Source of the DNA: a virus
Length of the DNA: 64,000 nucleotides
Virus record (IMG/VR): IMGVR_UViG_3300047095_001251
Coordinates: 1-64,000 of that record
Reading direction: 5' to 3' (one strand)
Shown here: piece after piece, positions 30,672-48,013 of the stretch
Position numbering within the stretch: position 1 is the stretch's first letter
Layout: each line of letters starts with the position of its first letter
The notes under the pieces: model-generated
What the model saw: the letters and a program-made list of their open reading frames with translations, nothing else
What the model was told of the DNA's origin: nothing
Databases searched by the model: none
Translations under genes and position numbers: made by a program

Positions 30672-31172
30672 ATGCAAACATGCTGGGAATTTAATAATTG
30701 TGATAAACTTGAGGTTTGCGATTTTTATAAAACTGCTAAAGAGAATAATACTCAAGATTTTTGTAGATGTTGGGAAGAAGATTCTAGTTTTTGTAAAATG
30801 ACAGAATGTGTTGGTAGATGTGTTGATTGTGAATACTTTTTAGAAGTTAGGAAAGTAGAAGGTAAAAGTTTTAAAATATTAACAAATAAAAATAATAGTA
30901 AAGAAATAATAATCGAAGTGAATACCGCAGTTACTAGTTATAATATATATAAATTTGAAGACAGAGTAATTAAAGAAATTTTAAAAAATAAGACTGATTT
31001 AATTACTTTCGATTTTAAAAAAACTGAAAGGATAGATAGCTCATTTTTAGGTTGTTTATTAGTAATAAAGAATTTTCTTGACGATTCTCGGAATATTAAA
31101 TTAATTAATTTGTCTGATCATTGTAAAAAACTGTTTGAAAGAGTTCAATTTGATAAACTATTTTCCATATAA
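30672..31172 (+). CDS. Two-CW domain plus STAS (anti-sigma antagonist-like) protein
   Basis: A 166-residue protein. The N-terminus (MQTCWEFNNC, then FCRCWEED, MTECVGRCVDC) fits the two-CW cysteine domain found in signalling proteins, especially of deltaproteobacteria. The C-terminal half is a STAS domain: ITFDFKKTERIDSSFLGCLL, with the usual phosphorylatable Ser in IDSS, and the final KLFERVQFDKLFSI helix. STAS proteins act as anti-anti-sigma switches. Two receiver-like genes converge on it from the other side. Signalling cassettes of this kind are rare in phages. Phosphorylation and partners are inference. Confidence 0.75.
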   Translation: MQTCWEFNNCDKLEVCDFYKTAKENNTQDFCRCWEEDSSFCKMTECVGRCVDCEYFLEVRKVEGKSFKILTNKNNSKEIIIEVNTAVTSYNIYKFEDRVIKEILKNKTDLITFDFKKTERIDSSFLGCLLVIKNFLDDSRNIKLINLSDHCKKLFERVQFDKLFSI

Positions 31173-32941: not shown

Positions 32942-32965
32942 TTAATATATAATATCTTTATAAGA
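32942..32965 (-). promoter_or_regulatory. Early-type phage promoter (minus)
   Basis: On the minus strand: TTATAAAGATATTATATATT, 35-60 bases before the zinc protein start. It is embedded in a near-palindrome (ATATCTTTATAAGATAT). Confidence 0.6.
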
Positions 32966-33000
32966 TATTTATAAAACAAAGTAATATTATAGGTTTAAAA

Positions 33001-33249
33001 ATGCCAAAAATTTTAACTGTGTTAGATAATTTAATTGAAGAAATGTGTTGTTCTTGTGATGATGAAGAACAAGATGAAGTATTAATTATATCAGATTTGT
33101 TAAATCCTGCAGATTTCACGAATGAAGATGGCGAAGTTAATTGTGAAAAATTGGAAAAAATGTTAACCGAAGCTAAGAAAATAGGAAACGAAGAATTAAT
33201 TGAAGCATTAGAAGATACAATTGATGCGCTTTGTGAGGAAGATGATTGA
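33001..33249 (+). CDS. Small acidic protein with capsid-targeting-like leader
   Basis: An 82-residue protein beginning MPKILTVLDNLIEEM, which matches the leader of the next two genes. The remainder is strongly acidic with a CCSC cluster (residues 16-19) and helical (CEKLEKMLTEAKKI). It overlaps the LigD-PE-like gene by 8 bases. The leader resembles T4 capsid-targeting sequences, where the prohead protease cuts after an L/I-x-E site; here L-I-E fits. Function of the mature part is unknown. Confidence 0.6.
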   Translation: MPKILTVLDNLIEEMCCSCDDEEQDEVLIISDLLNPADFTNEDGEVNCEKLEKMLTEAKKIGNEELIEALEDTIDALCEEDD

Positions 33250-33685
33250 TATATTGGAAGTATTAGATTTGTTATTAGAATCTGTCGAATTGCCAACTAC
33301 GAGATTTATCCTGCATCGACATCAAACGGAAAGGAAGAGGCCAGATCATTTTGATTTAAGAATTAAAAGATTGGATTCATTAACTAAAGCTATTTCTTTT
33401 GCTTTACCAAAAGCCACGATACCAAAAGAAGGAGAGAAATTATTATTAGTCAAAACCCCGGATCATAATGTAGCTTGGATTTTTGTTAATAATATTGAGA
33501 TTCCTTCTGGTAACTATGGAGCTGGTAAAATATCTACCGAAGACCAAGGCAAATTTAAAATTTTGAAATGGGATACTAATGATAATATAACTTTCATAGC
33601 TAATAGTAAATTAATGAATGGCGTTTATCATATAGTTAACACGAATAACAACAATTATATATTTTTTAAATCAAACAAAAGTTAA
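33242..33685 (+). CDS. LigD 3'-phosphoesterase (PE) domain protein with leader peptide
   Basis: A 147-residue protein. ATG 33242 has GAGGAAG directly before it and gives the leader MIDILEVLDLLLES. Residues 20-147 match the LigD_N phosphoesterase: RFILHRHQ (H27), DHFDLRI (H36, D38, R40), TPDHN (H75), IPSGNYGAG (87-95), and a final strand pair NGVYHIVN ... YIFFKS. In bacterial NHEJ this domain trims 3'-phosphate or ribonucleotide ends before ligation. All main catalytic residues known for LigD PE have a counterpart. It stands alone, next to a POL-like gene and with no ligase. The leader suggests packaging in the virion (inference). Confidence 0.75.
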   Translation: MIDILEVLDLLLESVELPTTRFILHRHQTERKRPDHFDLRIKRLDSLTKAISFALPKATIPKEGEKLLLVKTPDHNVAWIFVNNIEIPSGNYGAGKISTEDQGKFKILKWDTNDNITFIANSKLMNGVYHIVNTNNNNYIFFKSNKS

Positions 33686-33700
33686 ACTCCGCCGCTAAAA
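33685..33700 (+). repeat. Dispersed GC-rich element before the POL-like gene
   Basis: AACTCCGCCGCTAAAA occupies the place where a ribosome site would be expected, 7 bases before ATG 33708. No GGAG is present there. Confidence 0.6.
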
Positions 33701-33707
33701 CAATCAA

Positions 33708-34397
33708 ATGAGAATATTAAATATTTTAGATAATTTAATTTATGAAATAGAGAATCCAAATACTATAATAATTCAAAAGAATAAATATTATAAAAATGGA
33801 TTAAAAGAAATAGATATTTATAATTATTATCAAAAAAATAAAGAGAAAATATTAAAATCAGTAGATGAACAACCATTATCAAAGATTGTAATATTTATAC
33901 AATTAGACGATGGTAGAATAATAGTAAGAAAAGAAAATTTAGATATTCATAATAATTTTAATAAAGTATTACATCCAAGAGTAATAGGGTTAACTAAATT
34001 AATGGTGTCTCCTACGAATCTAATAGTAATAGATATAGATGCAAAAGGAGATAATATTGCAGAGGATGAGAAAAAGAAATCATTATTGAATCTAATTAAT
34101 TTAAATCTTTTAAATTCAAAATTATATAAAATATTAAATTCATCTACAGGTTATCAAGTATTTTTTAAATTAGATAAAGAATATGATATTGATAAATTAA
34201 GAGAATTGGTGAAAAATGAATTAAATATTAAAAATAAATTTAATTTTCCAGGTATTAAATATGATTTAACTATTATGTCAATTGGTGGGAATTATTTGGT
34301 AGAAAATTCATTAAATAGATCTACTGGATTAATAGTTAAAAATATAACTAATAATTGGAAAGATTATAAAAGAGAAGATTCAATTTTAAAAAAATAA
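33708..34397 (+). CDS. LigD POL-like archaeo-eukaryotic primase/polymerase with leader peptide
   Basis: A 229-residue protein starting MRILNILDNLIYEIE, the shared leader. The following region (NGLKEIDIYNYYQKNKEKIL, QPLSKIVIFIQLDDGRIIVRK) parallels the N-terminal part of LigD POL domains. LIVIDIDAKG (D109, D111) is the metal-binding D-x-D of motif I, and SSTGYQVFF (145-153) stands where motif II S-G-x-G-x-H lies, but the His is replaced by Gln. Motif III is less clear (possibly IKYDL). It follows the PE-like gene by 22 bases. Together they recall a LigD split into parts. The missing His makes activity uncertain. Confidence 0.6.
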   Translation: MRILNILDNLIYEIENPNTIIIQKNKYYKNGLKEIDIYNYYQKNKEKILKSVDEQPLSKIVIFIQLDDGRIIVRKENLDIHNNFNKVLHPRVIGLTKLMVSPTNLIVIDIDAKGDNIAEDEKKKSLLNLINLNLLNSKLYKILNSSTGYQVFFKLDKEYDIDKLRELVKNELNIKNKFNFPGIKYDLTIMSIGGNYLVENSLNRSTGLIVKNITNNWKDYKREDSILKK

Positions 34398-34416
34398 AGG
34401 GAGGCTACTGCCTCCC
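34384..34416 (-). terminator. Intrinsic terminator of the HTH gene
   Basis: On the minus strand GGGAGGCAGTAGCCTCCC forms a 7-bp GC-rich stem followed by TTTATTTTTTT. It overlaps the end of the convergent POL-like gene. Confidence 0.8.
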
Positions 34417-34650
34417 AGGTCCTTGGTTTCTCGTTGTCAGAGTGCGTTCAGCACTCCAACCCAGAACCTTGTACCTCTGGTAAACCAAGTTGGTCCCCAA
34501 CCCTGTCTCTTTCCCCCACTCCGTAGTAGTGAGGGAACGCCCGTTCCATGTTATGATCGTTGCCTTTTTCTTACGATGGCAACGAAGAGGGTCTTTGCTG
34601 CTTTCGATCCCCAACTTCTTCAGCGATCTTTCTGTTACATAATCACGCAT
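34405..34650 (-). CDS. Small helix-turn-helix protein of homing-endonuclease DNA-binding type
   Basis: An 81-residue protein. ITWNGRSLTTTEWGKETGLG followed by VYQRYKVLGWSAERTLTT matches the helix-turn-helix module often attached to phage HNH homing endonucleases and also found alone. The N-terminal 35 residues are basic. ATG 34650 follows GGGAGAAG. It has its own promoter (34681-34706) and terminator. Base composition is close to balanced, unlike neighbouring plus-strand genes, suggesting a separate origin. Confidence 0.65.
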   Translation of the reverse strand: MRDYVTERSLKKLGIESSKDPLRCHRKKKATIITWNGRSLTTTEWGKETGLGTNLVYQRYKVLGWSAERTLTTRNQGPGRQ

Positions 34651-34680
34651 CGTTCTTCTCCCAATAATGATGGTTAATAT

Positions 34681-34706
34681 TAATATATAATATCTTTATG
34701 AAAAAT
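34681..34706 (-). promoter_or_regulatory. Early-type phage promoter (minus)
   Basis: On the minus strand: TTTTTCATAAAGATATTATA, 30-55 bases before ATG 34650 and right after the terminator of repeat-RNA copy 1. Confidence 0.7.
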
Positions 34707-34710
34707 TTAA

Positions 34711-34790
34711 AAATAAAGTAGTCCAGTCTTTCGACTGGACGTATTGATTATCATCACTTTCCACCAGTTTCAAAATGGAGAACAGAATTA
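34711..34790 (-). ncRNA. Structured repeat element, copy 1 (short form)
   Basis: Eighty bases on the minus strand with the segment from TTCTGTTCTCCATTTTG through GATAATCAATAC, then the GAAA-capped stem GTCCAGTC/GACTGGAC and a T-rich run. It is nearly identical to 35130-35240 and 37086-37202 but lacks their first 30 bases. The final stem reads as an intrinsic terminator. There is no reading frame common to the copies. Confidence 0.6.
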
Positions 34791-34797
34791 TTTAAAA

Positions 34798-34824
34798 ATA
34801 AAGCCCGGCAGCACCGGGCTTACA
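34798..34824 (-). terminator. Intrinsic terminator of the 34831 gene
   Basis: AAGCCCGG, TGCTG, CCGGGCTT on the minus strand, followed by TATTTTTA. Confidence 0.8.
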
Positions 34825-34830
34825 TCTACT

Positions 34831-35064
34831 TCATGACATGATTTTTTCGTGGATTTTCTGAATATCCACGAAAAGATTATTGTGGAACTTTGCACCGGAA
34901 TCCATCCCTTCTTCAAATCCCTTTCCAGAGATGGCCCCAACCGTGCCACCTGTCAATATCGCAACAGTCCCTGTCGCGACACTCACCAACACCGTCACCG
35001 GGGCACCAATTGTTAGCCATGCTGCTTTCCCTACAACTTTCCCAACGTTTTTGATCAAAGACAT
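34831..35064 (-). CDS. Small Gly/Val-rich membrane-associated protein
   Basis: A 77-residue protein, start ATG 35064 behind GAGGAG. Residues 18-45 are a hydrophobic Gly/Ala/Val/Thr stretch (IGAPVTVLVSVATGTVAILT) able to span or lie on a membrane. The C-terminus is amphipathic (FVDIQKIHEKIMS). It has its own promoter and terminator. Balanced base composition marks it as part of the early-gene set. Function unknown. Confidence 0.6.
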   Translation of the reverse strand: MSLIKNVGKVVGKAAWLTIGAPVTVLVSVATGTVAILTGGTVGAISGKGFEEGMDSGAKFHNNLFVDIQKIHEKIMS

Positions 35065-35094
35065 CTTTCTTCTCCTCAATTGAGTTAATGTATA

Positions 35095-35120
35095 ATATAT
35101 AATATCTTTATGAAAAAGTT
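35095..35120 (-). promoter_or_regulatory. Early-type phage promoter (minus)
   Basis: On the minus strand: CTTTTTCATAAAGATATTAT, 30-55 bases before ATG 35064 and right after the terminator of repeat-RNA copy 2. Confidence 0.7.
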
Positions 35121-35129
35121 AAAAACAAA

Positions 35130-35240
35130 GTAGTCCAGTCTTTCGACTGGACGTATTGATTATCATCCCTTTCCACCAGTTTCAAAATTGAGAACAGAAT
35201 TGCCCATTGCGTCTCCAGGCAAATCCTGGATTTTAGACGT
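35130..35240 (-). ncRNA. Structured repeat element, copy 2 (long form)
   Basis: About 110 bases, almost the exact reverse complement of 37086-37202. It contains the stem CCAGG-ATTTG-CCTGG, a conserved middle part (GACGCAATGGGCAATTCTG, AACTGGTGGAAA), and the GAAA-capped terminator stem GTCCAGTC/GACTGGAC with a T-run. The three copies all precede an early-type promoter, so it could be a small RNA or a terminator cassette carried between accessory genes. Confidence 0.6.
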
Positions 35241-35253
35241 TATAACAAGAAAC

Positions 35254-35284
35254 CCGCCTCTGTTAGGAGGCGGTAATTCACATC
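35254..35284 (+). repeat. IS right-end hairpin, copy 2 (solo)
   Basis: Exact 31-base repeat of 372-402 (CCGCCTC ... GAGGCGG TAATTCACATC). No TnpB gene of that type stands before it, so this is a solitary end, probably a relic of a lost copy. Confidence 0.7.
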
Positions 35285-35312
35285 TCCTTTTTTAAAAAAT
35301 ATCTTGTTTTTA

Positions 35313-35340
35313 ATTTTTTTCATAAAGATATTATATAATA
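35313..35340 (+). promoter_or_regulatory. Early-type phage promoter (plus), now in front of the IS
   Basis: TTTTTTTCATAAAGATATTA with ATATAATA following. The IS left end begins about 25 bases downstream, so the IS seems to have landed just after a phage promoter, which originally may have served repeat-RNA copy 3 beyond the IS. Confidence 0.7.
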
Positions 35341-35409
35341 CATTAATTACCCAGCATTAGAAAAGCCCCGTACTTTAGTGCGGGGGTCAAATTTAAATTT
35401 TTAAATTTA

Positions 35410-35775
35410 ATGAAAAACCAATCTTCGCTATACTATCATCTTATTTTTGTAACCAAATATAGAAAAAAACTTTTATATAATCAAGATATCAGGGATATTT
35501 TAAAAATCATATGCTACGAAGTAGCACATGATTTAGATATTAATATTGTTGAAATAGAAGTGACTATTGATCATGTACACATATTATTCAGATCGAAGAT
35601 AACCACAGATATATCGATATTTATTAAAATATTAAAAGGTAGGTCTTCATACATTTTAAAATCTAAATTCAATTTAAAATGTAATCATTTATGGTCACCA
35701 TCTTATTATATTTCTACTTGTGGAAATGTAAAGATAGATATTATTAAGAGATATATTAAAATACAAAACATTTAG
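35410..35775 (+). CDS. tnpA: IS200/IS605 Y1 (HUH) transposase TnpA
   Basis: A 121-residue protein. The H-x-H motif of HUH enzymes is DHVHIL (H55, H57), and the C-terminal helix IIKRYIKIQ carries the likely nucleophile Y115. WSPSYYISTCGN matches the conserved block before that helix. It cuts and joins single-stranded IS ends recognised through subterminal hairpins, present here on both sides. It is slightly shorter than typical members but complete at both ends. The ATG lies directly after an AT-rich leader. Confidence 0.9.
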   Translation: MKNQSSLYYHLIFVTKYRKKLLYNQDIRDILKIICYEVAHDLDINIVEIEVTIDHVHILFRSKITTDISIFIKILKGRSSYILKSKFNLKCNHLWSPSYYISTCGNVKIDIIKRYIKIQNI

Positions 35776-35791
35776 GATTGAGAAAGAGTTA

Positions 35792-36964
35792 ATGAGTTGT
35801 CGAGCATACAAAGTTAGGTTAAAGCCTAATTCCACAGAGATTAAATATTTTGAGAAGAATTTTGGAAGTGTTAGATGGATATGGAATACGATGTTAGCAT
35901 TTCAGAAGAATCTTTATGAATCTACTGGTAAGATAGAGAATGCTTATGAATTAGAGAAAAATATAACATTTTTAAAAGATTTTTATCCATGGTTAAAGGA
36001 AGTAGAATCTACTGCGTTAATGGAGTCTGTTAAGAATCTTGGTAAGAGTTATGACGCATTTTTTAAATCAGTTACTGGTAAACGTAAAGGAGCGTTGATC
36101 AATCTCCCCAAATTTAAATCTAAAAAACATCCATCTAAATCTTTTAGTATTTTATCAAATGATAGAATTAAGATTAATGGAGATTTTATTAAGTTACCGA
36201 AGATAGGAGAAGTAAAAGTAGTTAAAGATCAATTAGATAGGATAACTGGAAGGATCTTAAGGGTAACTATTTCTAAAGATGCTGTTAATAATTATTATGC
36301 ATCTATTTTGGTTGAGGAAGATATAATACCCAGATATAATAAGACTGGGAAGTCTATTGGGTTAGATGTAGGTATAAAGACTACAATATCTGATAATTAT
36401 GGCAATAGTTTTAATCTACCGATGGGAAAATTAGCTATGTTAGATGATAAGATAGTTAAATTAAATCAAGATTTAAGTAGGAAGCAGAAGGGATCCAAGA
36501 ATTTTAGTGATACGAGAACCAAGTTAGCTAGAATTTATAGGAAGAAGAGTAATATAGTTAATGATTTTCATCACAAGTTCTCTAATTATATAGTTAAGAA
36601 TTATGATGTTTGTTGTATAGAGACATTAGATTTAAAAGGGATGATGAGTAACCATAATTTTGCTAAGTCTCTTCAAGATAGAGCTATATATAAACTACAG
36701 ACGTATATAGAGTATAAGATGATGTGGGATAATAAAGATGTAGTAAGAGTGAGTAAGGTATTCCCGTCGACTCAGATATGTAATGTTTGTAAGTATAGGA
36801 ACAAGCAGTTAACTCTAAGTGATAGAGAATGGGATTGTCCTAAATGCAGTACTCATCATGACAGGGATACAAATGCAGCTTTAAACTTGTATAAAATAGG
36901 TGAATATTTTAGATTAAATAATAAGATACTGACGAGTAGTCAATATATCATATCGGGTGTATAA
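35792..36964 (+). CDS. tnpB: TnpB RNA-guided nuclease, intact
   Basis: A 390-residue protein. It begins with the helical domain KVRLKPNSTEIKYFEKNFG and shows RuvC-I GLDVGIKTT (Asp near 192), RuvC-II CCIETLDLKGM (Glu near 276), a zinc ribbon CNVCK ... CPKC, and RuvC-III HHDRDTNAALNLY (Asp near 357). TnpB uses the RNA made from the IS right end as guide and helps keep the IS at its site. All catalytic residues are present. It starts 16 bases after tnpA ends. Confidence 0.95.
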   Translation: MSCRAYKVRLKPNSTEIKYFEKNFGSVRWIWNTMLAFQKNLYESTGKIENAYELEKNITFLKDFYPWLKEVESTALMESVKNLGKSYDAFFKSVTGKRKGALINLPKFKSKKHPSKSFSILSNDRIKINGDFIKLPKIGEVKVVKDQLDRITGRILRVTISKDAVNNYYASILVEEDIIPRYNKTGKSIGLDVGIKTTISDNYGNSFNLPMGKLAMLDDKIVKLNQDLSRKQKGSKNFSDTRTKLARIYRKKSNIVNDFHHKFSNYIVKNYDVCCIETLDLKGMMSNHNFAKSLQDRAIYKLQTYIEYKMMWDNKDVVRVSKVFPSTQICNVCKYRNKQLTLSDREWDCPKCSTHHDRDTNAALNLYKIGEYFRLNNKILTSSQYIISGV

Positions 36965-37050
36965 TCTAAAACTACCCACGGACTGTGGGAAGGTTAAGCT
37001 CGGAGTTTTTAACCGAGAATCCCCGTACTTTAGTGCGGGGAGTATGTCAA
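36965..37050 (+). ncRNA. Predicted omega-RNA scaffold at the IS right end
   Basis: Three consecutive hairpins follow the TnpB stop: CCCAC-GGACT-GTGGG, GGTTAA ... TTAACC, and CCCCG ... CGGGG, then AGTATGTCAAGG. In this family the guide RNA overlaps the end of tnpB and its guide lies just beyond the right end, here starting near 37041-37052. The guide would therefore match phage flanking DNA. Confidence 0.6.
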
Positions 37051-37085
37051 GGTGGAGATGACATTATAGAAATGACGGAGAAATC

Positions 37086-37202
37086 CGCTAAAATCCAGGA
37101 TTTGCCTGGAGACGCAATGGGCAATTCTGTTCTCCATTTTGAAACTGGTGGAAATGGATGATAATCAATACGTCCAGTCGAAAGACTGGACTACTTTATT
37201 TT
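37086..37202 (+). ncRNA. Structured repeat element, copy 3 (long form)
   Basis: Plus-strand copy of the element at 35130-35240, differing at a few positions (for example CTCCATTTTG against CTCAATTTTG, AAATGGATG against AAAGGGATG). It ends with the same GAAA-capped terminator stem at 37171-37190 and T-run, then an early-type promoter. The region between the IS and this element (37051-37085) holds no gene. Confidence 0.6.
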
Positions 37203-37205
37203 TAA

Positions 37206-37230
37206 ATTTTTCATAAAGATATTATATATT
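37206..37230 (+). promoter_or_regulatory. Early-type phage promoter (plus)
   Basis: TTTTTCATAAAGATATTATA just after the terminator of copy 3 and 105 bases before the glycosyltransferase gene. Confidence 0.7.
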
Positions 37231-37266
37231 GAAGCAGTTTAACTTTTTAAATTAAAGGAGATTGAA

Positions 37267-37290
37267 ATGTTTGGTCCAGTATTTTTTTAA
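37267..37290 (+). CDS. Possible 7-residue leader peptide (MFGPVFF)
   Basis: A strong ribosome site (AAAGGAGATTGAA) precedes ATG 37267, but the frame stops after seven codons. It lies between the promoter and the glycosyltransferase gene. It may be a leader peptide, the stub of a decayed gene, or chance. Confidence 0.3.
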   Translation: MFGPVFF

Positions 37291-37334
37291 AATTATAGAT
37301 TAAAAATTAAAATTGTGGACAGGAGTTTTTTTAT

Positions 37335-38498
37335 TTGGAATATTTGAGTGTTGAAGTAATTAATAGATTAGGATTAACTATTGAAGAATTTAAATTAATG
37401 TCATTAAAGAAACCTAATAATATGGGAGAATACATCAATCTCCCGTCAGAAGTAGTTGTAGCAAAGGTAGAGAAAGATTTAGAAATTTTAAATTTAGAAT
37501 CTATAGAAAATTTCCCCGTTAAAAAAGACACATATTTATTTTTACGAATGTCTAATTTTATTAAATTATTTAATAAGGGACATATATTACCAACATCTAT
37601 TTTTAAACAAGTATATAAACCATATACTGGTCAAGATTTAAATAATAAACATTTACTAGTATGGGTTTTTAATGCAGGCATAGGTGATATAGTTTTTCAA
37701 TTGACAGTTTTAAGATTATTAAAAATAAAATTTCCAAGATTATATATCACATATGCGGTACCAAAGGATTATATAGAATTTATTAAATCTATAAATATTG
37801 TAGATAACGTGATAATAAATATATTTGAAGCAAAACTATTATTAACATCAGATTACCATTTACATTTTGAAGGATTAATTAGATCTGGATTAGGGGAACA
37901 TACTAATATATATAAATTATTAGCGGAAAGGGTATATTTAAATAACACATTAGAAGAATTATATCCGCAATTCCCACCAAATCCGATATACCGAAAAGTT
38001 TGGGAAATAGAATTAAAAAATAGAAATATAGATGAATTTATTATTATTAATTTTAATTCAAATAACCCCATGAGGGGAGCGTCTTCTAATTTTAAAAATA
38101 AATTATTAGATAAGTTTAAAGAAAAAATTATTGTGTTTATTGACCATCCGAGAAATTCATATAATATAGATAAATTAATAAAAGGTAGAGATAATTGTTA
38201 CAATTTTTCAGATTTATCTAAAAATTTAATTCAATCAGTTTCCCTTTTATCGTTAGCTAAGTTAGTAATTTCTGTAGATACTGGGTTAATACATTTAGCT
38301 GCTGCAGTCGGAACCCCTACATTTGGAATATATGGACCTTTCCCTGGAGAATTAAGAGTTTTAAGTTATCCAAATTCTAAATTTATTAATGGATTATGTA
38401 GATTAAATAAATCATGTATGGAACATGATAAATTCAAATGTGATTATTGGAACATAGATGGTCCCGAATGTTATGATAATATAGATCTTTGTTTTTAA
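37335..38498 (+). CDS. Glycosyltransferase family 9 (heptosyltransferase-like)
   Basis: A 387-residue protein, start TTG 37335 behind AGGAG. NAGIGDIVFQLTVLRLLK is the N-terminal GT9 motif, and LVISVDTGLIHLAAAVGTP followed by TFGIYGPFPGE is the C-terminal nucleotide-sugar site. An N-terminal extension of about 110 residues and a Cys-rich C-terminus (CRLNKSCMEHDKFKC) are additions to the usual fold. GT9 enzymes add heptose or related sugars to LPS core. In a phage it could change the host surface or glycosylate a phage component. A Gram-negative host is suggested but not proven. Confidence 0.85.
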   Translation: MEYLSVEVINRLGLTIEEFKLMSLKKPNNMGEYINLPSEVVVAKVEKDLEILNLESIENFPVKKDTYLFLRMSNFIKLFNKGHILPTSIFKQVYKPYTGQDLNNKHLLVWVFNAGIGDIVFQLTVLRLLKIKFPRLYITYAVPKDYIEFIKSINIVDNVIINIFEAKLLLTSDYHLHFEGLIRSGLGEHTNIYKLLAERVYLNNTLEELYPQFPPNPIYRKVWEIELKNRNIDEFIIINFNSNNPMRGASSNFKNKLLDKFKEKIIVFIDHPRNSYNIDKLIKGRDNCYNFSDLSKNLIQSVSLLSLAKLVISVDTGLIHLAAAVGTPTFGIYGPFPGELRVLSYPNSKFINGLCRLNKSCMEHDKFKCDYWNIDGPECYDNIDLCF

Positions 38499-38524
38499 CT
38501 TTTTCATAAAGATATTATATATTA
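38498..38524 (+). promoter_or_regulatory. Early-type phage promoter (plus)
   Basis: CTTTTTCATAAAGATATTAT about 50-70 bases before ATG 38571. Confidence 0.7.
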
Positions 38525-38570
38525 ATATAAACCGGACTGTGTCCAATAACTTCTCTTGAAAGGAGAAGCC

Positions 38571-38912
38571 ATGAGTACGTTGATTGAATTGATTGACCAG
38601 GAAGACGATGGTCTTTCTGTTCCGGACGAAGTAGTTCATAAGAAATTTCAGTCCAAAAGGGCTGAATTCATTAACGAAAGTCAGGTCGACCTTCGTAGTG
38701 AGTCATCTGACTCTCTATTGGTAGTTCGTTTCACGATGGCTCGTAGCTTTTGGATTTTCCCAGTAGTGGAAGTCCACGCTTGGAGTAAATCGGCGGGAAT
38801 TGGCCCCCCCATGGTGAAATTGGGGAAAATCTCCAAAGATTTGGCATTAAAACTGATAGACATCGGGGACGCGAATATCGCGTTGACAACGGTGTTGTCG
38901 AAAGCGGGGTAA
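38571..38912 (+). CDS. Unknown early protein (113 aa)
   Basis: Start ATG 38571 behind AAAGGAG. The N-terminus is acidic (LIELIDQEDDGLSVPDE); the middle is a beta-type domain (SLLVVRFTMARSFWIFPVVE, VHAWSKSAGIGPP). It has its own promoter and terminator and a balanced base composition like other early genes. The N-terminus resembles the leader of neighbouring proteins only loosely. No family is recognised. Confidence 0.6.
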   Translation: MSTLIELIDQEDDGLSVPDEVVHKKFQSKRAEFINESQVDLRSESSDSLLVVRFTMARSFWIFPVVEVHAWSKSAGIGPPMVKLGKISKDLALKLIDIGDANIALTTVLSKAG

Positions 38913-38928
38913 CCCGCTTTTTCTTTTA
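38899..38928 (+). terminator. Intrinsic terminator
   Basis: AAAGCGGG, GTAA, CCCGCTTT followed by TTCTTTTATTTTT; it overlaps the stop codon of the 38571 gene. Confidence 0.8.
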
Positions 38929-38999
38929 TTTTTAAAAATAAAAATTAACCAATTATTATCAATTTGAATTTTTAATAACCTTTCATTTAAAGATAGAAA

Positions 39000-39251
39000 A
39001 TGAAATCAATTTTAGAAAGTTTAGATTTTTTAATTGAAGAATCAAATTATCATCATTATAGGAAAAATATTAAGTTAGGAAGTTTAGTTTCTGTGGTTAA
39101 AAAAGAAAATCAGAGAAATGGGATCCAACATAAAGGTGTAGTTCAAAAAATTTTAACTTCTAAATCTACACATACCCGAGGAATTAAGGTTAAAGTAAAA
39201 TTAAGAAATGGAAGTGTAATTGTTGGCAGAGTTCAATCATTATTAAATTAA
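39000..39251 (+). CDS. YwbE-family (DUF2196) protein with leader peptide
   Basis: An 83-residue protein. Residues 21-83 (RKNIKLGSLVSVVKKENQRN, GIQHKGVVQKILTSKSTHTR, GSVIVGRVQSLL) match the whole of the small YwbE family, which is normally about 60-65 residues. The extra N-terminal 18 residues, MKSILESLDFLIEESNYH, are the same type of leader as at 33001, 33242 and 33708. YwbE proteins are basic and of unknown function, with an OB/KOW-like look. The leader before a complete domain supports the view that it is a detachable address tag. Confidence 0.75.
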   Translation: MKSILESLDFLIEESNYHHYRKNIKLGSLVSVVKKENQRNGIQHKGVVQKILTSKSTHTRGIKVKVKLRNGSVIVGRVQSLLN

Positions 39252-39546: not shown

Positions 39547-40026
39547 ATGCTATTATTAAAAATAGTAACAGCAGATAATAATATTAAGGAATTAATAACA
39601 GAAGAATCAGCAAATATTAATAATGTGATCGAAATAGATTTTCTTGAATTTATAAATGAACACATTTTAAAATATGTTAAATCTAATATAGAACAGTTTA
39701 TTGTTGAAGATAATTTAATATTAACAAAAAATAATATTGCAAATTTTTCTAAAAATATGATATTAAATATTTTGGAAGAATTATCTTTGAGAGATAGATT
39801 AAAACACGGAATTTATAAGTTGGGAGCAGGTATTTCAGTTAAAGGACATGAAATTTTAAATGATCCAACAACACATCATACTATGTATAACGCCATTAGT
39901 AACCCTAGTCTGAGAAATATTGGATTTGCTGGAGCTACATTAATAGGTGACAAAATTATTAAGAAAGCATTTGCGACAAAAACTGTTCAAAATGCATTAA
40001 CGAAAATTAAAAAAAATAATAAGTAA
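39547..40026 (+). CDS. Unknown protein with possible capsid-targeting-like N-terminus
   Basis: A 159-residue protein, ATG 39547 behind AAAAGGA. The first residues (MLLLKIVTADNNIKELITEE) contain L-I-T-E-E-S, a candidate prohead-protease site, preceded by a hydrophobic start. The C-terminal part (HEILNDPTTHHTMYNAI, NIGFAGATLIGDKIIKKAF) is more conserved-looking and basic. It may be another packaged internal protein, but the leader is longer than in the others. Confidence 0.5.
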   Translation: MLLLKIVTADNNIKELITEESANINNVIEIDFLEFINEHILKYVKSNIEQFIVEDNLILTKNNIANFSKNMILNILEELSLRDRLKHGIYKLGAGISVKGHEILNDPTTHHTMYNAISNPSLRNIGFAGATLIGDKIIKKAFATKTVQNALTKIKKNNK

Positions 40027-42964: not shown

Positions 42965-45106
42965 ATGGCCGGATTTTTCGAAGATTTGTTTGGATCGAAG
43001 AAAGAAATGAGTAATGGAGTAGTTGATGATTTAATTTCAAGAATCGATTCTGCGGTTGACAATTTAAATATAAAAGCAGGAAACGATATTTTTTCAGAAG
43101 ATTCGTTAATTTCTAGATCTGTTTCTGATTTATTAATTAATAATGATCAATCTAATGATCCATTTGACAAATTTAAACCTACTGAAATAGATTCTCTTTT
43201 TAAAGACATCTCCATCCCAGCAGAACGAATTCAAAAATACCAAGTATATGATTCAATTTATACATCCGTGCCTATTATTAAACGGATTGTTACAGTTTAT
43301 ATGGATAATATATTCCAGAAAGACACTATTAATAATAAAATCTTTAATATTAAAGAAATAAAAGCTGATAATTTTTCTGGAGATAAAGAAGAATACCTTA
43401 GTTTTATTAAAAAATTTATAGAGTTTTTTAATTTAGAAGAAAAGTTAAAAAATATAGTATTCAAATCTATTAAATATGGTGATTCATATATCGAATTGGT
43501 AAATTTAGATAAGATCGAAGATAAGTTCCCAGTTGTAATGAAACCAAATTCCGCCGCTCAAGATAAAAACACATTATCAGAATACTCTAATAAAGTAGTA
43601 ACAGAAAGTGTAATTTTTGAAAGTTTAAAAAAGTCATTAGAGTTTAATAGTTATAAATTAGATTCTTTAGATTTTAATAAACTATCTGATCTATTATTCG
43701 AATTTAAAGATATTACTACTTTAAATGAGGTAGAAGACACTTTTATTTTCGAATCTTCATCAAATAATAATTCTAAAAGTAAGGATAATATGCATGGTAT
43801 TTTATTAAGATATCATAATCCACATAATATAATACCAGTAGTAACTGAATATAATTCAGTATTAGGATATGTAGAAATAAATGAAATAGAAAAGAAAAAT
43901 AATGAATCTTTTAATCCAACTTTAGGATTCTTAGATATAATTAAAAAAGTATCGTCAAATTCTTCAGGTACATTGGAACAAAATCAAGAAAAATTAATTA
44001 AAAACTTTGCAGTAGAAATAGCTAAGAAAATTATTCTTAAATATAATATATTCTATAGTAACGATAATAACTCTAATAATAGATTAAAATTAGAAAAAGA
44101 TTATAATCAAAAGATTAAAGATAATTTAGATAAAGAGATTTTCTATTCTTTAAAAAGAATGTTAGTCGAATCTAAATCTATTTCTCTTTTTCATAAGAAA
44201 TTATCTGTTAGATTTATTCCAGTTAATAATATGTTTAAGTTTTCAATTAATTCTGATCAAAATTTTCCATTTGGCGAGTCAATATTATCAAATTTAGTAT
44301 ACCCTGCTAAATTATATTTATTAACACAATTATCAAATGTTATTAATAAATTAAGTAGATCTTCAATTATAAGGAAATGGACAGTAGATTTGGGTTCAAG
44401 AGAAAATGATGCAGAATTTGTTAATAGATTAAAACAACAATTAAGATCTAATAAAATTACTGCTTCAGATTTAACTACTAATAAAGATACTACTAGAATT
44501 TTATCAGATTATAGAGATCTTTTAACATTTACTAAAAGAGGTCAACCATATGTTAATGTCGAGACATTACCATTAGGGGATTCTGGTTCAAATATTCGTG
44601 TCCAAGATTTAGAACAATTATTAAAGGAAATTATGAGTTTAAGTGGAATCCCAGGAACTTACTTGGGTATAGATATGAATGTTGAATTAAAAGATCAATT
44701 ATCTCATGTAAATATTTCCTTTGCAAATACAATTAGTTCTATTCAACACAATATATCAACTTCATTAAATGATCTAATGGATCGAGTAGCGAGCGAACTC
44801 GGATTTAAAGATAGAGTATCGAGTGTTGCGAAAATTCATTTAGTACCTCCTATAGCTTTAATTTTACAATTAATTGAATCTGCAATTACATCAGTTACTA
44901 ACATTAATAGATTATTTATTGATATCCCTGCGTTGAAAGATTTAGATCCATTATATTTATTAAAATCGTATGTACCTTATATCGATTGGGAAGAATATAT
45001 GGAGTACAGTGATAGTAGAAAAAGAGAATTAGATATTATTAAATTAAAGCAACAAGTAATCCAACAACAAACTGGTTCGCAGCAACAAAACGGACCTCCA
45101 TTTTAG
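42965..45106 (+). CDS. Portal protein (T4 gp20 type)
   Basis: A 713-residue protein. The region NIIPVVTEYNSVLGYVEI, then IIRKWTVDLGSRENDAEFVN, and LPLGDSGSNIRVQDLEQLL followed by LSGIPGTYLGIDMN is the typical portal core with the tunnel-lining part. The C-terminus is Gln-rich (QQQTGSQQQNG). The dodecameric portal nucleates the prohead and is the channel for packaging. It precedes core, protease and capsid genes, as in T4. The dispersed GC-rich element lies in frame at 43547 (N-S-A-A-Q-D-K). Confidence 0.9.
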   Translation: MAGFFEDLFGSKKEMSNGVVDDLISRIDSAVDNLNIKAGNDIFSEDSLISRSVSDLLINNDQSNDPFDKFKPTEIDSLFKDISIPAERIQKYQVYDSIYTSVPIIKRIVTVYMDNIFQKDTINNKIFNIKEIKADNFSGDKEEYLSFIKKFIEFFNLEEKLKNIVFKSIKYGDSYIELVNLDKIEDKFPVVMKPNSAAQDKNTLSEYSNKVVTESVIFESLKKSLEFNSYKLDSLDFNKLSDLLFEFKDITTLNEVEDTFIFESSSNNNSKSKDNMHGILLRYHNPHNIIPVVTEYNSVLGYVEINEIEKKNNESFNPTLGFLDIIKKVSSNSSGTLEQNQEKLIKNFAVEIAKKIILKYNIFYSNDNNSNNRLKLEKDYNQKIKDNLDKEIFYSLKRMLVESKSISLFHKKLSVRFIPVNNMFKFSINSDQNFPFGESILSNLVYPAKLYLLTQLSNVINKLSRSSIIRKWTVDLGSRENDAEFVNRLKQQLRSNKITASDLTTNKDTTRILSDYRDLLTFTKRGQPYVNVETLPLGDSGSNIRVQDLEQLLKEIMSLSGIPGTYLGIDMNVELKDQLSHVNISFANTISSIQHNISTSLNDLMDRVASELGFKDRVSSVAKIHLVPPIALILQLIESAITSVTNINRLFIDIPALKDLDPLYLLKSYVPYIDWEEYMEYSDSRKRELDIIKLKQQVIQQQTGSQQQNGPPF
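43547..43567 (+). repeat. Dispersed GC-rich element, intragenic copy
   Basis: AATTCCGCCGCTCAAGATAA, read as N-S-A-A-Q-D-K inside the portal gene. Confidence 0.65.
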
Positions 45107-45127: not shown

Positions 45128-45478
45128 ATGCACATTCTTCACCTTTTAATGGAAGCATCTAATTCTTTGCAAGGTCTCCAACAACAAGAACCAGTTCAAC
45201 CGGATCAACCAGTTCAACAACCTGTAGTAGATCCCGCTGCACAACAATTGGCAGAACCTCCTGAAATGATAGAATTTAAAAAATATATCATTTTTGGTAA
45301 ATTAAAAGAATTAAAAGATTCATTAGAAAATGCTTCTATAGTTTATTCAAAAGATTATAAAGATGTCGTCTACTTTATTAATATATTAATTACTTTTTAT
45401 GATATTTTTGAATACGAACAATTAATTAATATTGTTAATGTATTAATAGATAAGATCGAAAAACTTAAAAAAAAATAA
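45128..45478 (+). CDS. Prohead core protein (gp67-like position and leader)
   Basis: A 116-residue protein. It begins MHILHLLMEASNSLQG; L-L-M-E followed by A-S fits a prohead-protease cleavage site, and the hydrophobic start parallels the leaders at 33001-39000. A Gln/Pro-rich stretch (QQQEPVQPDQPVQQP) follows, then helices ending in KIEKLKKK. Its place between portal and protease is that of gp67/gp68 in T4. Because this is a head-core gene, its leader supports reading the similar leaders as capsid-targeting signals. Confidence 0.6.
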   Translation: MHILHLLMEASNSLQGLQQQEPVQPDQPVQQPVVDPAAQQLAEPPEMIEFKKYIIFGKLKELKDSLENASIVYSKDYKDVVYFINILITFYDIFEYEQLINIVNVLIDKIEKLKKK

Positions 45479-45494
45479 CACGGAGCTTTTATTT

Positions 45495-46271
45495 ATGAGA
45501 GGAATTACTTTAGTAATGGAGGAAACTTTTTCAGTTACTCCAGGTAATTTGAAAATTTTACAAGAATCTATTTTAGAGAATGGGTCGGGTAAAGTAAAAT
45601 TTAAAGTTCCTCTACAAGATGCTGAAACTGTTAATGGAAATCGCAGATTTTATTCAAGAGAGACTTGTAATTCGATTGTAGAATCTCTTAAACCGATGGC
45701 TAAAAATAGATGTCTATTTCAAGAAATAGATCATCCTATGATATCTTCAAATGACCAAGATTCCATTAAGAAAAGAGCAGTAGTAGTAGAACTTAAAAAC
45801 TGCGGAAGTATGATTAGTGACATATATATGGATGGTAATAATGTCATGGGGATTATTGAAACTCTTTCTGGGTTTAGAGGCCCGGACTTAGCTGATTTAA
45901 TCTTAAAAGATAAAGCTAATATTGGATTTAGCTTACGTGCATTTTCTAGGGTTGAACCTCATCCTAGACTTGAAAATGTAATGGAAGTAAAAAATCCGAT
46001 TAAATCAATTACTTATGATACAGTCACGAACCCATCCCATAAAAATTCAAGAATGGTTCAATTTACTACAGAATCTGCACAATTTAGAGAATTATTGAAT
46101 TCTTCCGATGAAGATGAATTAAATATAATTCATGAGTGCGAGTCTATTTTATCTACCGATAATTTATATAACCCAAATACATCAAAACAGGTAATTGTCC
46201 AATACCTTAATGAATTAGTACGGGAAGCTTATGATGAGCTTCGTACAATTACATTCAAAGTTGGCAAATAA
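45495..46271 (+). CDS. Prohead maturation protease (T4 gp21 type)
   Basis: A 258-residue protein. H80 in FQEIDHP and S146 in NIGFSLRAF are the His and Ser of the herpesvirus-assemblin-like prohead protease fold, and NGNRRFYSRET is the usual N-terminal strand. The N-terminus LVMEETFS and LKILQESILE contain L-x-E type sites, which may allow self-processing. In T4 the enzyme cuts capsid, scaffold and internal proteins after L/I-x-E. ATG 45495 follows CGGAG. The capsid gene follows. Confidence 0.85.
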   Translation: MRGITLVMEETFSVTPGNLKILQESILENGSGKVKFKVPLQDAETVNGNRRFYSRETCNSIVESLKPMAKNRCLFQEIDHPMISSNDQDSIKKRAVVVELKNCGSMISDIYMDGNNVMGIIETLSGFRGPDLADLILKDKANIGFSLRAFSRVEPHPRLENVMEVKNPIKSITYDTVTNPSHKNSRMVQFTTESAQFRELLNSSDEDELNIIHECESILSTDNLYNPNTSKQVIVQYLNELVREAYDELRTITFKVGK

Positions 46272-46315: not shown

Positions 46316-48013
46316 ATGGGCGTTATTAGAGATTACACCGATACTGTTTTCGAAAATTATAATGTATTTTTAAAAGAACATGATGAGTTTTTCCGTTCTC
46401 CATCAAAAGCAATGGAGATGTTGGCTAGTAATGGTAGTTTCAATGCATTTGTTGGTCAATTAACCGATGGTATGGCTCCTCACTCAAAGTATGCTGTTGA
46501 ACAAGTACTAAAGCGTGAGCGTCAAATGTTATTAGAAGAGTCTGCTAGTGGCCAAATTGGTGCTACTTCTAGTGCTATTGGTTATGCAGTTTCCTATTTC
46601 CCAATCTTATCAGATATTTATAGTGATCCTGTAATTTCTCAAATTGCTACTACGTATCCCGTTTCTAAGTCAGTACTATCTATTCCCAAGATCAAACTAT
46701 GGTCTTCATTTACAGATCATGCTGGTAATAAACAAAGACAACAAATGCCACGCACTGAGCTATTAGCAAGACAACCAGCTCTTTATACTCGTGTATCTGG
46801 AGGGACTTCAGTTAATTTATTTTCAGGTGCTCAATTCTCTAAAGTGTTGGGTGATACTGGAAACGTATTTACTATTTCATCAACAGTTGTCAATCCTAAT
46901 ATTTCGAGAGTTAATAAGAGATTCTTAACGGTTGATCAATTTAATTATACTGACGTAGTAGGTGCTGCTGCTGGTAGTATTAAGGTTATTCTTCGTCCTG
47001 ATGCCAGAGGACAGATTAAAGGTGAAGCTAAGATTAAAATTGGTGCAACTGAGGCTACTTTGACGTTATTCGGTAGTATTAATTTTGATACTGGGGTATT
47101 TACATTTTCAATGAGTTCGTCAAATGCTGCAGTAGCAACATTTAATAGTTTTGATATGTCGGTAATCTTTAGTCCTAAGTCTGGGGATTATGGACGTACA
47201 AAAGTAAGTTTAGAAATGGAAGGCTGGGATATTGATATCGATAACAGAGAAGAATTCGAAATCGAATTATACACCGAGCAACTCCAAGATTACCAAGATA
47301 TCTATAACATAGATTTACTTCGTACTTTGAGTATGGGTATTAAAACCCAAATGTTATTAAATAAAGATCAAGATTTAGCATATTTCTTAGGTAAATATGA
47401 AGCAGATATGCGCTCAAATGGGGCCGCAGCATTCTGTGATTTAGAAGCTTTTAATAATGCATCCGGTAGTTTTACTCCTTCTAATATTACTGATATTTTC
47501 AAAGGGGTTGTACCTTTTATCACTGCATTAACTCGTCGTATTCATAAAAATTTCCGTGGTGCTCCTCAATATATTTTAGCTGGCGAAAGAACCGCTGCTA
47601 TTTTAGAGAGCTTACAATCTTGGGAAGCAGCAATGCCAGGGATGAATGCAGGTAGTTTCGGAGCAAATAATGAGAGTAATATTATCTCTTTCCGTAAGCA
47701 AACAATCCTTTGTTGCAACGCTCTACCAGAAGGTAAAATTTATCTAGTATATAAAGCTGCTGGTGATGATTTAGCCAGAACTGCTATTGCTGATATTGTT
47801 TACAAACCATTATTTATGGTTGATGAAATTACTAATTCAATGAAGCGGACTTTCGTAAAATCGCGTACAGCATTAGAAGTTACTGCTCCGGAAGCATTAG
47901 GTGTTATCTATGTAGATGGGTATAATAAATATTTAGCTAACACTGGCGATTATGGTACCAACCATGGATTTGGTTCGTTATCTGACCTAACCATCACAGA
48001 CATGACCCCATAA
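46316..48013 (+). CDS. Major capsid protein (T4 gp23 type)
   Basis: A 565-residue protein. It has an acidic, helical N-terminal propeptide ending near QMLLEESASGQ (residues 70-80), where LLEE|S fits the prohead-protease rule. Then the HK97-fold N-arm (YFPILSDIYSDPVISQIATT), a beta insertion, and the C-terminal P/A domain (NFRGAPQYILAGERTAAILE, YIVDGYN-like end). Codons are less AT-biased than in neighbours, as is common for a highly expressed gene. A strong terminator follows at 48024. Confidence 0.92.
   Translation: MGVIRDYTDTVFENYNVFLKEHDEFFRSPSKAMEMLASNGSFNAFVGQLTDGMAPHSKYAVEQVLKRERQMLLEESASGQIGATSSAIGYAVSYFPILSDIYSDPVISQIATTYPVSKSVLSIPKIKLWSSFTDHAGNKQRQQMPRTELLARQPALYTRVSGGTSVNLFSGAQFSKVLGDTGNVFTISSTVVNPNISRVNKRFLTVDQFNYTDVVGAAAGSIKVILRPDARGQIKGEAKIKIGATEATLTLFGSINFDTGVFTFSMSSSNAAVATFNSFDMSVIFSPKSGDYGRTKVSLEMEGWDIDIDNREEFEIELYTEQLQDYQDIYNIDLLRTLSMGIKTQMLLNKDQDLAYFLGKYEADMRSNGAAAFCDLEAFNNASGSFTPSNITDIFKGVVPFITALTRRIHKNFRGAPQYILAGERTAAILESLQSWEAAMPGMNAGSFGANNESNIISFRKQTILCCNALPEGKIYLVYKAAGDDLARTAIADIVYKPLFMVDEITNSMKRTFVKSRTALEVTAPEALGVIYVDGYNKYLANTGDYGTNHGFGSLSDLTITDMTP

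What the first reader, a model, noticed from the sequence alone, without database searches (positions are those of the whole stretch)
33001..39251. Shared capsid-targeting-like leader on unrelated small proteins, including separate LigD-PE and LigD-POL homologues
Seen: the proteins at 33001, 33242, 33708 and 39000 begin MPKILTVLDNLIEE, MIDILEVLDLLLES, MRILNILDNLIYE and MKSILESLDFLIEES, then continue into unrelated domains (acidic protein, LigD phosphoesterase, LigD-POL-like primase, YwbE). In the YwbE case the leader precedes a complete domain, so it is an added tag. The head-core protein at 45128 (MHILHLLMEAS) and perhaps 39547 carry related starts. Known: T4 internal proteins carry an N-terminal capsid-targeting sequence that the prohead protease removes after L/I-x-E; a gp21-type protease is at 45495. 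Inference: these proteins are packed into the head, trimmed, and injected with the DNA. A PE and a POL enzyme delivered with the genome would make a split, virion-borne NHEJ-like end-processing system, acting on incoming DNA ends.
Basis: partly seen in the sequence, partly recalled or inferred. Interest (0 to 1): 0.92.

Follow-up and report, generated by a model that had tools for sequence, protein, structure and literature searches.

The report
Head-packaging tag on phage repair enzymes
A large uncultivated phage carries two DNA-end-processing enzymes related to bacterial LigD (plus two other small proteins) with the same short front-end tag, which looks like the T4-type address label for being packed into the virus head and then clipped off, so the phage may inject DNA-repair enzymes together with its genome.

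Summary
Four proteins (33001, 33242, 33708, 39000) share a 13-residue leader, M-x-x-I-L-x-x-L-D-x-L-I-E; they give the five best of 3081 N-terminal pair scores in the record. The PE assignment is solid (LigD_N E 1.6e-12). The POL assignment is solid at fold level (all 25 significant Foldseek hits in the PDB are Prim-Pols), but its motif II His is Gln. I found four distant relatives of this phage. Their untagged PE, and in three of them an untagged POL, start where the window's leader ends, so the leader is an added tag. A stringent cleavage motif, [LIV][LIM]E[EA][ST], occurs four times in 21,571 aa: in the protease, the core protein, the capsid protein at residue 74, and the YwbE leader. One relative puts its own leader, MYISEQYLNE, on 11 unrelated proteins (DsrC, helicase, GNAT and others). 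This matches T4 capsid-targeting sequences. Packaging and injection remain inferred. The 'NHEJ-like' label is weak: no Ku or ATP-dependent ligase was found in the record or the four relatives. In an unrelated phage group, ligase, POL and PE domains are fused in one giant protein; in one member it is encoded within the head-gene module.

The parts
33001..33249 (+). 82-aa acidic protein with leader MPKILTVLDNLIE|EM (leader 33001-33039)
   Evidence: no family match
33242..33685 (+). Stand-alone LigD-type 3'-phosphoesterase with leader MIDILEVLDLLLE|SV (33242-33280)
   Evidence: PF13298 E 1.6e-12 over cut-off; PDB 3p4h E 3e-16; H27, H36, D38, R40, K57, H75 conserved; leader absent in three relatives
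33708..34397 (+). Stand-alone Prim-Pol (POL-like) protein with leader MRILNILDNLIYE|IE (33708-33746)
   Evidence: phrog_695 E 2e-4; homologues in G012, G006, G013 without leader; AF2 pLDDT 76; Foldseek hits with E<1e-3 all Prim-Pols, e.g. 2irx TM 0.65
39000..39251 (+). YwbE/DUF2196 protein with leader MKSILESLDFLIE|ES (39000-39038)
   Evidence: PF09962 E 2.9e-17; TIGR03833 61.1 bits against cut-off 63.4; fourth site of the head cleavage-like motif
42965..45106 (+). Portal protein
   Evidence: tblastn to AR9/PBS1 and Serratia BF portals, E 2e-5 to 3e-4; alignment
45128..45478 (+). Prohead-core-like protein in the gp67/68 position, MHILHLLME|AS
   Evidence: gene order as in T4 20-67-68-21; motif
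45495..46271 (+). Prohead protease (gp21/S80 type), N-terminal site MRGITLVME|ET
   Evidence: phrog_207 E 3e-19, phrog_3014 E 3e-14; Peptidase_S80 E 4e-6
46316..48013 (+). Major capsid protein with predicted cleavage site RQMLLE|ESASG at residue 74
   Evidence: phrog_20655 E 8e-9; motif; candidate site at residue 70 of the G012 MCP, RVALME|NS
39547..40026 (+). Weak further candidate, MLLLKIVTADNNIKELITE|ES
   Evidence: I-x-E|ES at residue 19, otherwise unlike the leaders
32948..32985 (+). Copy of a repeated intergenic motif, TATAATATCTTTAT...AAAACAAAG, 53 bp before the leader cassette (possible promoter)

Best explanation
The leader is a capsid-targeting sequence of the T4 internal-protein type. 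It recruits four otherwise unrelated proteins into the prohead core; the phage's gp21/S80-type protease then cuts after the [LI]xE glutamate, and the trimmed proteins stay with the packaged DNA and enter the host with it. In this phage the tag was added to a stand-alone LigD-type 3'-phosphoesterase and a stand-alone Prim-Pol that relatives make untagged. The most likely job of this cargo is healing of 3' ends (removal of 3' phosphate or ribonucleotide) and short gap filling on the incoming genome, with sealing by a host or phage ligase. Shown: shared leader, added-tag nature, enzyme families, protease, matching motif in head proteins. Inferred: packaging, cleavage, injection, substrate and function.
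For: Leader similarity far above null (control). Cleavage-like motif only in YwbE leader, core, protease and MCP. T4 head proteins show the same pattern, and T4 CTS work shows 10 residues suffice to package foreign enzymes and that gp21 cuts after L/I-x-E (PMC9026906; PMC3012670). PE and POL homologues in relatives start where the leader ends; residues 1-13 are unstructured in the POL model. Relative G012 has its own leader on 11 non-homologous proteins, with pair score 32.4 in the leader against 8.0 in residues 26-38, including DsrC E 7e-24 and a SNF2/DEAD helicase E 2e-16; G013 has another leader set. A similar leader, MRDLLESLDRIIE|AP, sits beside a virion structural protein in L072. PE and POL occur together in three relatives and, fused with a ligase, in an unrelated phage group; in one member of that group the fusion lies between portal and MCP genes.
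Against: No virion proteomics. PE and POL are untagged in the relatives. The leaders of 33001, PE and POL deviate from the strict motif found in the head proteins. The three adjacent leaders could come from one local duplication. The motif II His of POL is Gln. No Ku or ligase in the record. Other shared N-termini without [LI]xE exist in phages (MKxRxGFVSNSSSSSF), so a shared N-terminus alone does not prove capsid targeting.
Confidence: 0.66

Rival explanations
1. The leader is a prohead-core/scaffold motif: the tagged proteins enter the prohead but are core components that are degraded or expelled during maturation (like T4 gp67/gp68/gp22), not delivered to the host.
For: The acidic 33001 protein resembles acidic core proteins such as gp67; core protein 45128 carries a related start.
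Against: PE and YwbE are intact catalytic or domain folds starting right after the site, POL likewise apart from motif II; core proteins meant for degradation have no need of such folds.
Confidence: 0.13
2. The leader is a sorting or interaction signal unrelated to the head (for example a phage-compartment import signal, membrane-binding helix, degron or partner-docking helix).
For: Some jumbo phages sort proteins within the cell, and the portal is distantly like that of AR9/PBS1. Non-[LI]xE N-terminal motifs occur in G002, G006 and G010.
Against: The strict motif coincides with the phage's own head protease, core and MCP sites; each relative's leader has its own form but mostly ends in [LIV]xE (9 of 11 in G012).
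Confidence: 0.13
3. No function: local duplication of a 5' gene end (start region) spread the same N-terminus by recombination.
For: 33001, 33242 and 33708 are adjacent, and 33001/33708 leaders match at 31 of 42 nucleotides.
Against: YwbE lies 5 kb away; relative G012 carries a tagged set spread over more than 100 kb with a different leader; similarity of the other pairs is clearer at the protein than at the DNA level.
Confidence: 0.06
4. Virion-borne split NHEJ: PE and POL act with Ku and a ligase (phage or host) to join or circularise the incoming genome, as first proposed.
For: LIG, POL and PE are fused in giant proteins of an unrelated phage group, in G002 inside the head-gene module. Mycobacteriophage Corndog is thought to use a phage Ku for circularisation (PMC4351075). 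NHEJ enzymes also occur as separate operonic proteins (PMC4538821).
Against: No Ku in any of the 14 records tested, no ATP-dependent ligase in the window record or its relatives; G013 has only an NAD-type ligase. POL motif II is altered.
Confidence: 0.12

Closest known systems
T4 internal proteins IPI/IPII/IPIII with capsid-targeting sequence, processed by gp21
   Same: Short shared N-terminal sequence on otherwise unrelated proteins, ending in L/I-x-E; gp21-type protease; same head gene order
   Different: 13-residue leader of different sequence; cargo includes a LigD-type PE, a Prim-Pol and YwbE; packaging not shown
phiKZ/SPN3US head and inner-body proteins with cleaved propeptides
   Same: Large phage lineage; many head proteins trimmed after Glu; enzymes such as RNA polymerase subunits are packaged (PMC9026906, PMC13282480)
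   Different: phiKZ motif is S/A-x-E, not L/I-x-E; no LigD-type cargo reported in what I read
Bacterial/archaeal LigD and stand-alone PE and NHEJ polymerase (Methanocella, Korarchaeum)
   Same: PE fold family with its catalytic residues; POL model matches LigD POL and the Methanocella NHEJ polymerase
   Different: Separate phage genes with head-type tag, no Ku, no ATP-dependent ligase found, POL motif II His replaced by Gln
Polyvalent proteins of phages and plasmids (PMC5512222)
   Same: Idea of many enzymes delivered with incoming DNA; a giant LIG-POL-PE protein of this sort lies in the head module of G002
   Different: Window encodes separate tagged proteins instead of one multidomain protein

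Membership tests
T4-type capsid-targeting sequence / internal protein | Short N-terminal sequence shared by otherwise unrelated proteins | tested here: met
T4-type capsid-targeting sequence / internal protein | Leader ends in L/I-x-E, consistent with sites in the phage's own head proteins | tested here: met
   All four end in L/I-x-E; strict motif shared with core, protease and MCP only for YwbE
T4-type capsid-targeting sequence / internal protein | gp21-family prohead protease encoded | tested here: met
T4-type capsid-targeting sequence / internal protein | Trimmed protein present in virions and injected; leader sufficient for packaging | not testable with these tools
   needs virions
LigD 3'-phosphoesterase family (PF13298) | Profile score over curated cut-off | tested here: met
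   48 bits against 31.1
LigD 3'-phosphoesterase family (PF13298) | Catalytic His42/His48/Asp50 and Arg52/His84 equivalents | tested here: met
   H27, H36, D38, R40, H75 (residues from PMC8656161); the Tyr88 equivalent is Trp
LigD polymerase / Prim-Pol (AEP) superfamily | Prim-Pol fold | tested here: met
   Foldseek: all 25 hits with E<1e-3 are Prim-Pols
LigD polymerase / Prim-Pol (AEP) superfamily | Motif I DxD and motif III Asp | tested here: met
   D109, D111, D186
LigD polymerase / Prim-Pol (AEP) superfamily | Motif II His | tested here: not met
   Gln in the window (TGYQ), His in all eight homologues aligned
LigD polymerase / Prim-Pol (AEP) superfamily | Pfam LigD_Prim-Pol match of the protein itself | tested here: not met
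   Five viral homologues match (best E 9e-5), the window protein does not
Bacterial NHEJ system | Ku | tested here: not met
   None in the 70-kb record or relatives; the record is a fragment
Bacterial NHEJ system | ATP-dependent ligase (LigD LIG) | tested here: not met
   None in record or relatives; NAD ligase in G013
YwbE/DUF2196 | Profile match | tested here: met
   PF09962 62.8 bits against 25; TIGR03833 61.1 against 63.4
Polyvalent proteins | Several enzymatic domains in one polypeptide | tested here: not met
   Separate genes in the window

The most novel reading that the evidence does not exclude
An undescribed lineage of large phages uses genome-specific, exchangeable capsid-targeting tags to load diverse host-acting and DNA-repair enzymes into the head; in this member the tagged cargo forms a Ku-independent, virion-delivered 3'-end-healing and gap-filling pair (PE plus Prim-Pol), convergent with the giant LIG-POL-PE protein encoded in the head module of an unrelated phage.
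Probability: 0.4. Interest if true: 0.85.

Novelty: new variant of a known kind. Interest (0 to 1): 0.72.

Why it matters
If the tags are capsid-targeting sequences, the protein cargo of phage heads can be read directly from sequence in uncultivated phages, which is now done almost only by proteomics. Delivery of a LigD-type phosphoesterase and a Prim-Pol with the genome would mean that some phages treat the ends or gaps of their incoming DNA as damage to be repaired at once, before any phage gene is expressed.

Tried and rejected
Close relatives by single-protein scans of IMG/VR (portal, PE, YwbE) and tblastn in phages (PE, MCP, YwbE) found none; alignment-based scans did. [LI]xE alone as a test: rejected as non-informative. 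The first AF2 model of POL with six sequences was useless (pLDDT 41); it was repeated with nearer homologues. A DNA pattern scan for the leader returned mostly short chance ORFs, with one informative family (L072/L142). PDB profile search with POL gave only a weak archaeal PriS hit (E 0.049). The SKRA linker in giant proteins of G002 and relatives was considered as a cleavage site but not proven. phrog_207 in the giant-protein records gave nothing, but its control also did not ring.

Full report
The window is 64 kb of a 70,202-base uncultivated virus record. Its head genes lie in T4 order: portal (42965; distant match to AR9/PBS1 and Serratia BF portals), a small core-like protein (45128), a gp21/S80-type protease (45495; phrog_207 E 3e-19) and a capsid protein (46316; phrog_20655 E 8e-9). 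The terminase at 21623 belongs to the T4 superfamily. T4 itself has 20-67-68-21-22-23.

The leader. MPKILTVLDNLIE, MIDILEVLDLLLE, MRILNILDNLIYE and MKSILESLDFLIE open the proteins at 33001, 33242, 33708 and 39000. Over 79 ORFs the five highest of 3081 N-terminal pair scores are among these four; the four-set score is 187 against 121.5 +/- 6.7 for shuffled N-termini, with a maximum of 144 in 200 shuffles and 177 for random internal windows. The same method on 49 kb of T4 ranks ipII/ipIII first. The [LI]xE triplet alone is common at N-termini (21 of 79). The motif [LIV][LIM]E[EA][ST], read from the core, protease and capsid proteins, occurs four times in 21,571 residues (shuffled expectation 1.0): those three and the YwbE leader. 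It was formulated after seeing the sequences, so its weight is moderate, but the three head proteins are the ones expected to be cut from T4 (PMC9026906).

The proteins. PE: LigD_N 48 bits against a cut-off of 31.1, nearest solved relative 3p4h (E 3e-16), catalytic residues present, Tyr88 equivalent Trp. POL: only phrog_695 at E 2e-4 by itself, but homologous to the POL-like domain of viral giant proteins (E 1.4e-6 in a small set) and to stand-alone 225-232-aa proteins of three relatives (E 1.7e-25 to 1.6e-6). The AF2 model (pLDDT 76, pTM 0.75, residues 1-13 unstructured) finds only Prim-Pols below E 1e-3, including LigD POL (2irx, 2fao, TM 0.65) and the Methanocella NHEJ polymerase. DxD and the motif III Asp are kept; the motif II His is Gln, whereas all eight aligned homologues have His. 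YwbE: DUF2196 62.8 bits.

Relatives. Alignment-based scans reached four long records with related terminase and/or portal: G012 (183 kb), G013 (245 kb), G006 (149 kb), G010 (128 kb). All have a stand-alone PE; G012, G013 and G006 have a stand-alone POL, never adjacent to PE. None has the window's leader: in alignment the homologues begin where the leader ends (POL: IENPNTII... against MPYPEHPNTKII...; PE). In G010 the called PE ORF has a longer, different N-terminal part, and its true start is uncertain. So the leader is an added element on PE and POL, as on YwbE.

The relatives tag other proteins. In G012 eleven ORFs start M[YF][IL]SE[QE]Y[IL]xE or close variants, nine of them ending in [LIV]xE; leader pair score 32.4, other N-termini 8.7, shuffled 11.5 +/- 0.6, residues 26-38 8.0. 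The tagged bodies include DsrC (E 7e-24), a SNF2/DEAD helicase (E 2e-16), and weak matches to GNAT, a papain-like amidase and a Pol-beta-type nucleotidyltransferase. The last lies directly upstream of, and overlaps by a base, the untagged POL. In G013 six ORFs share MN[DEN]LLExLE..., with similarity running beyond the leader (25.2 in residues 26-38), so these may be partly homologous proteins with a longer propeptide. The G012 capsid protein has candidate sites LLNE|A at residue 8 and ALME|N at residue 70.

Independent case. In an unrelated group (G002, 161 kb) a 2718-aa protein carries an ATP-dependent ligase, a POL-like and a PE domain and is encoded between the portal and capsid genes. Similar giant proteins occur in other records. 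This is the pattern of polyvalent proteins, thought to be delivered with DNA (PMC5512222), and gives a second context in which PE and POL are linked to head genes.

Function. The PE family removes 3' phosphates and ribonucleotides, and LigD POL fills gaps (PMC8656161). Delivery with DNA would suit immediate end healing or gap repair. A Ku-LigD system is not indicated: no Ku in 14 records, no ATP-dependent ligase in the window record or the four relatives, NAD ligase only in G013. The altered motif II makes polymerase activity of the window's POL uncertain.

Status of steps. Shown by computation: the shared leader, its added nature, families and fold, protease, motif coincidence, tagged sets in relatives. 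Inferred from T4 precedent: targeting, cleavage, packaging, injection. Speculative: repair of incoming DNA. What I read of the literature (limited to open papers) describes CTS-tagged anti-restriction and other internal proteins, not LigD-type cargo, so I class this as a new variant of a known kind.

Noticed in passing
window 32948, 39492, 40455, 51315, 3681 and others: A 14-bp intergenic motif TATAATATCTTTAT followed by AAAAA..TTAAAAACAAAG is repeated at least 13 times without mismatch in the 70-kb record, in both orientations; 53-55 bp before 33001 and 39547. Possible phage promoter.
   Followed up: partly
window 34720-37230: IS200/IS605-like TnpA (35410) and TnpB (35792) inserted between POL and YwbE, flanked by inverted copies of a 'tagtccagtctttcgactggacg' segment; a homologous pair is in G012.
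   Followed up: no
L012 2207-10363, L013, L018, L176, L177: Giant phage proteins (up to 3474 aa) with LIG, POL and PE domains; modules often preceded by an 'LSKRA' linker that also occurs at the starts of neighbouring ORFs. Possible processing site.
   Followed up: partly
L018 794-10330: The PE domain is interrupted by an intein-like insertion.
   Followed up: no
G002, G006, G010 (loci L110-L118, L219-L226, L202-L208): Many small ORFs share a different N-terminus, MKxRxGFVSNSSSSSF or MKYKASEVTNSSSTSF, without an [LI]xE end.
   Followed up: no
L072 6466-7734 and L142: 405-422-aa protein with leader MRDLLESLDRIIE|AP and a weak endolysin-like match, next to a virion structural protein starting MKSFRSYLVE|SE.
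   Followed up: partly
L140 5015-5299: HicA-like toxin with leader-like start MPDIFEEFDNIIEETS on a 179-kb viral contig.
   Followed up: no
window 37335-38498: Heptosyltransferase-like protein conserved in all four relatives.
   Followed up: no
window 30672-31172: Anti-sigma-factor-antagonist-like protein, next to two minus-strand ORFs (31158, 31853) that look like response-regulator receivers by eye.
   Followed up: no
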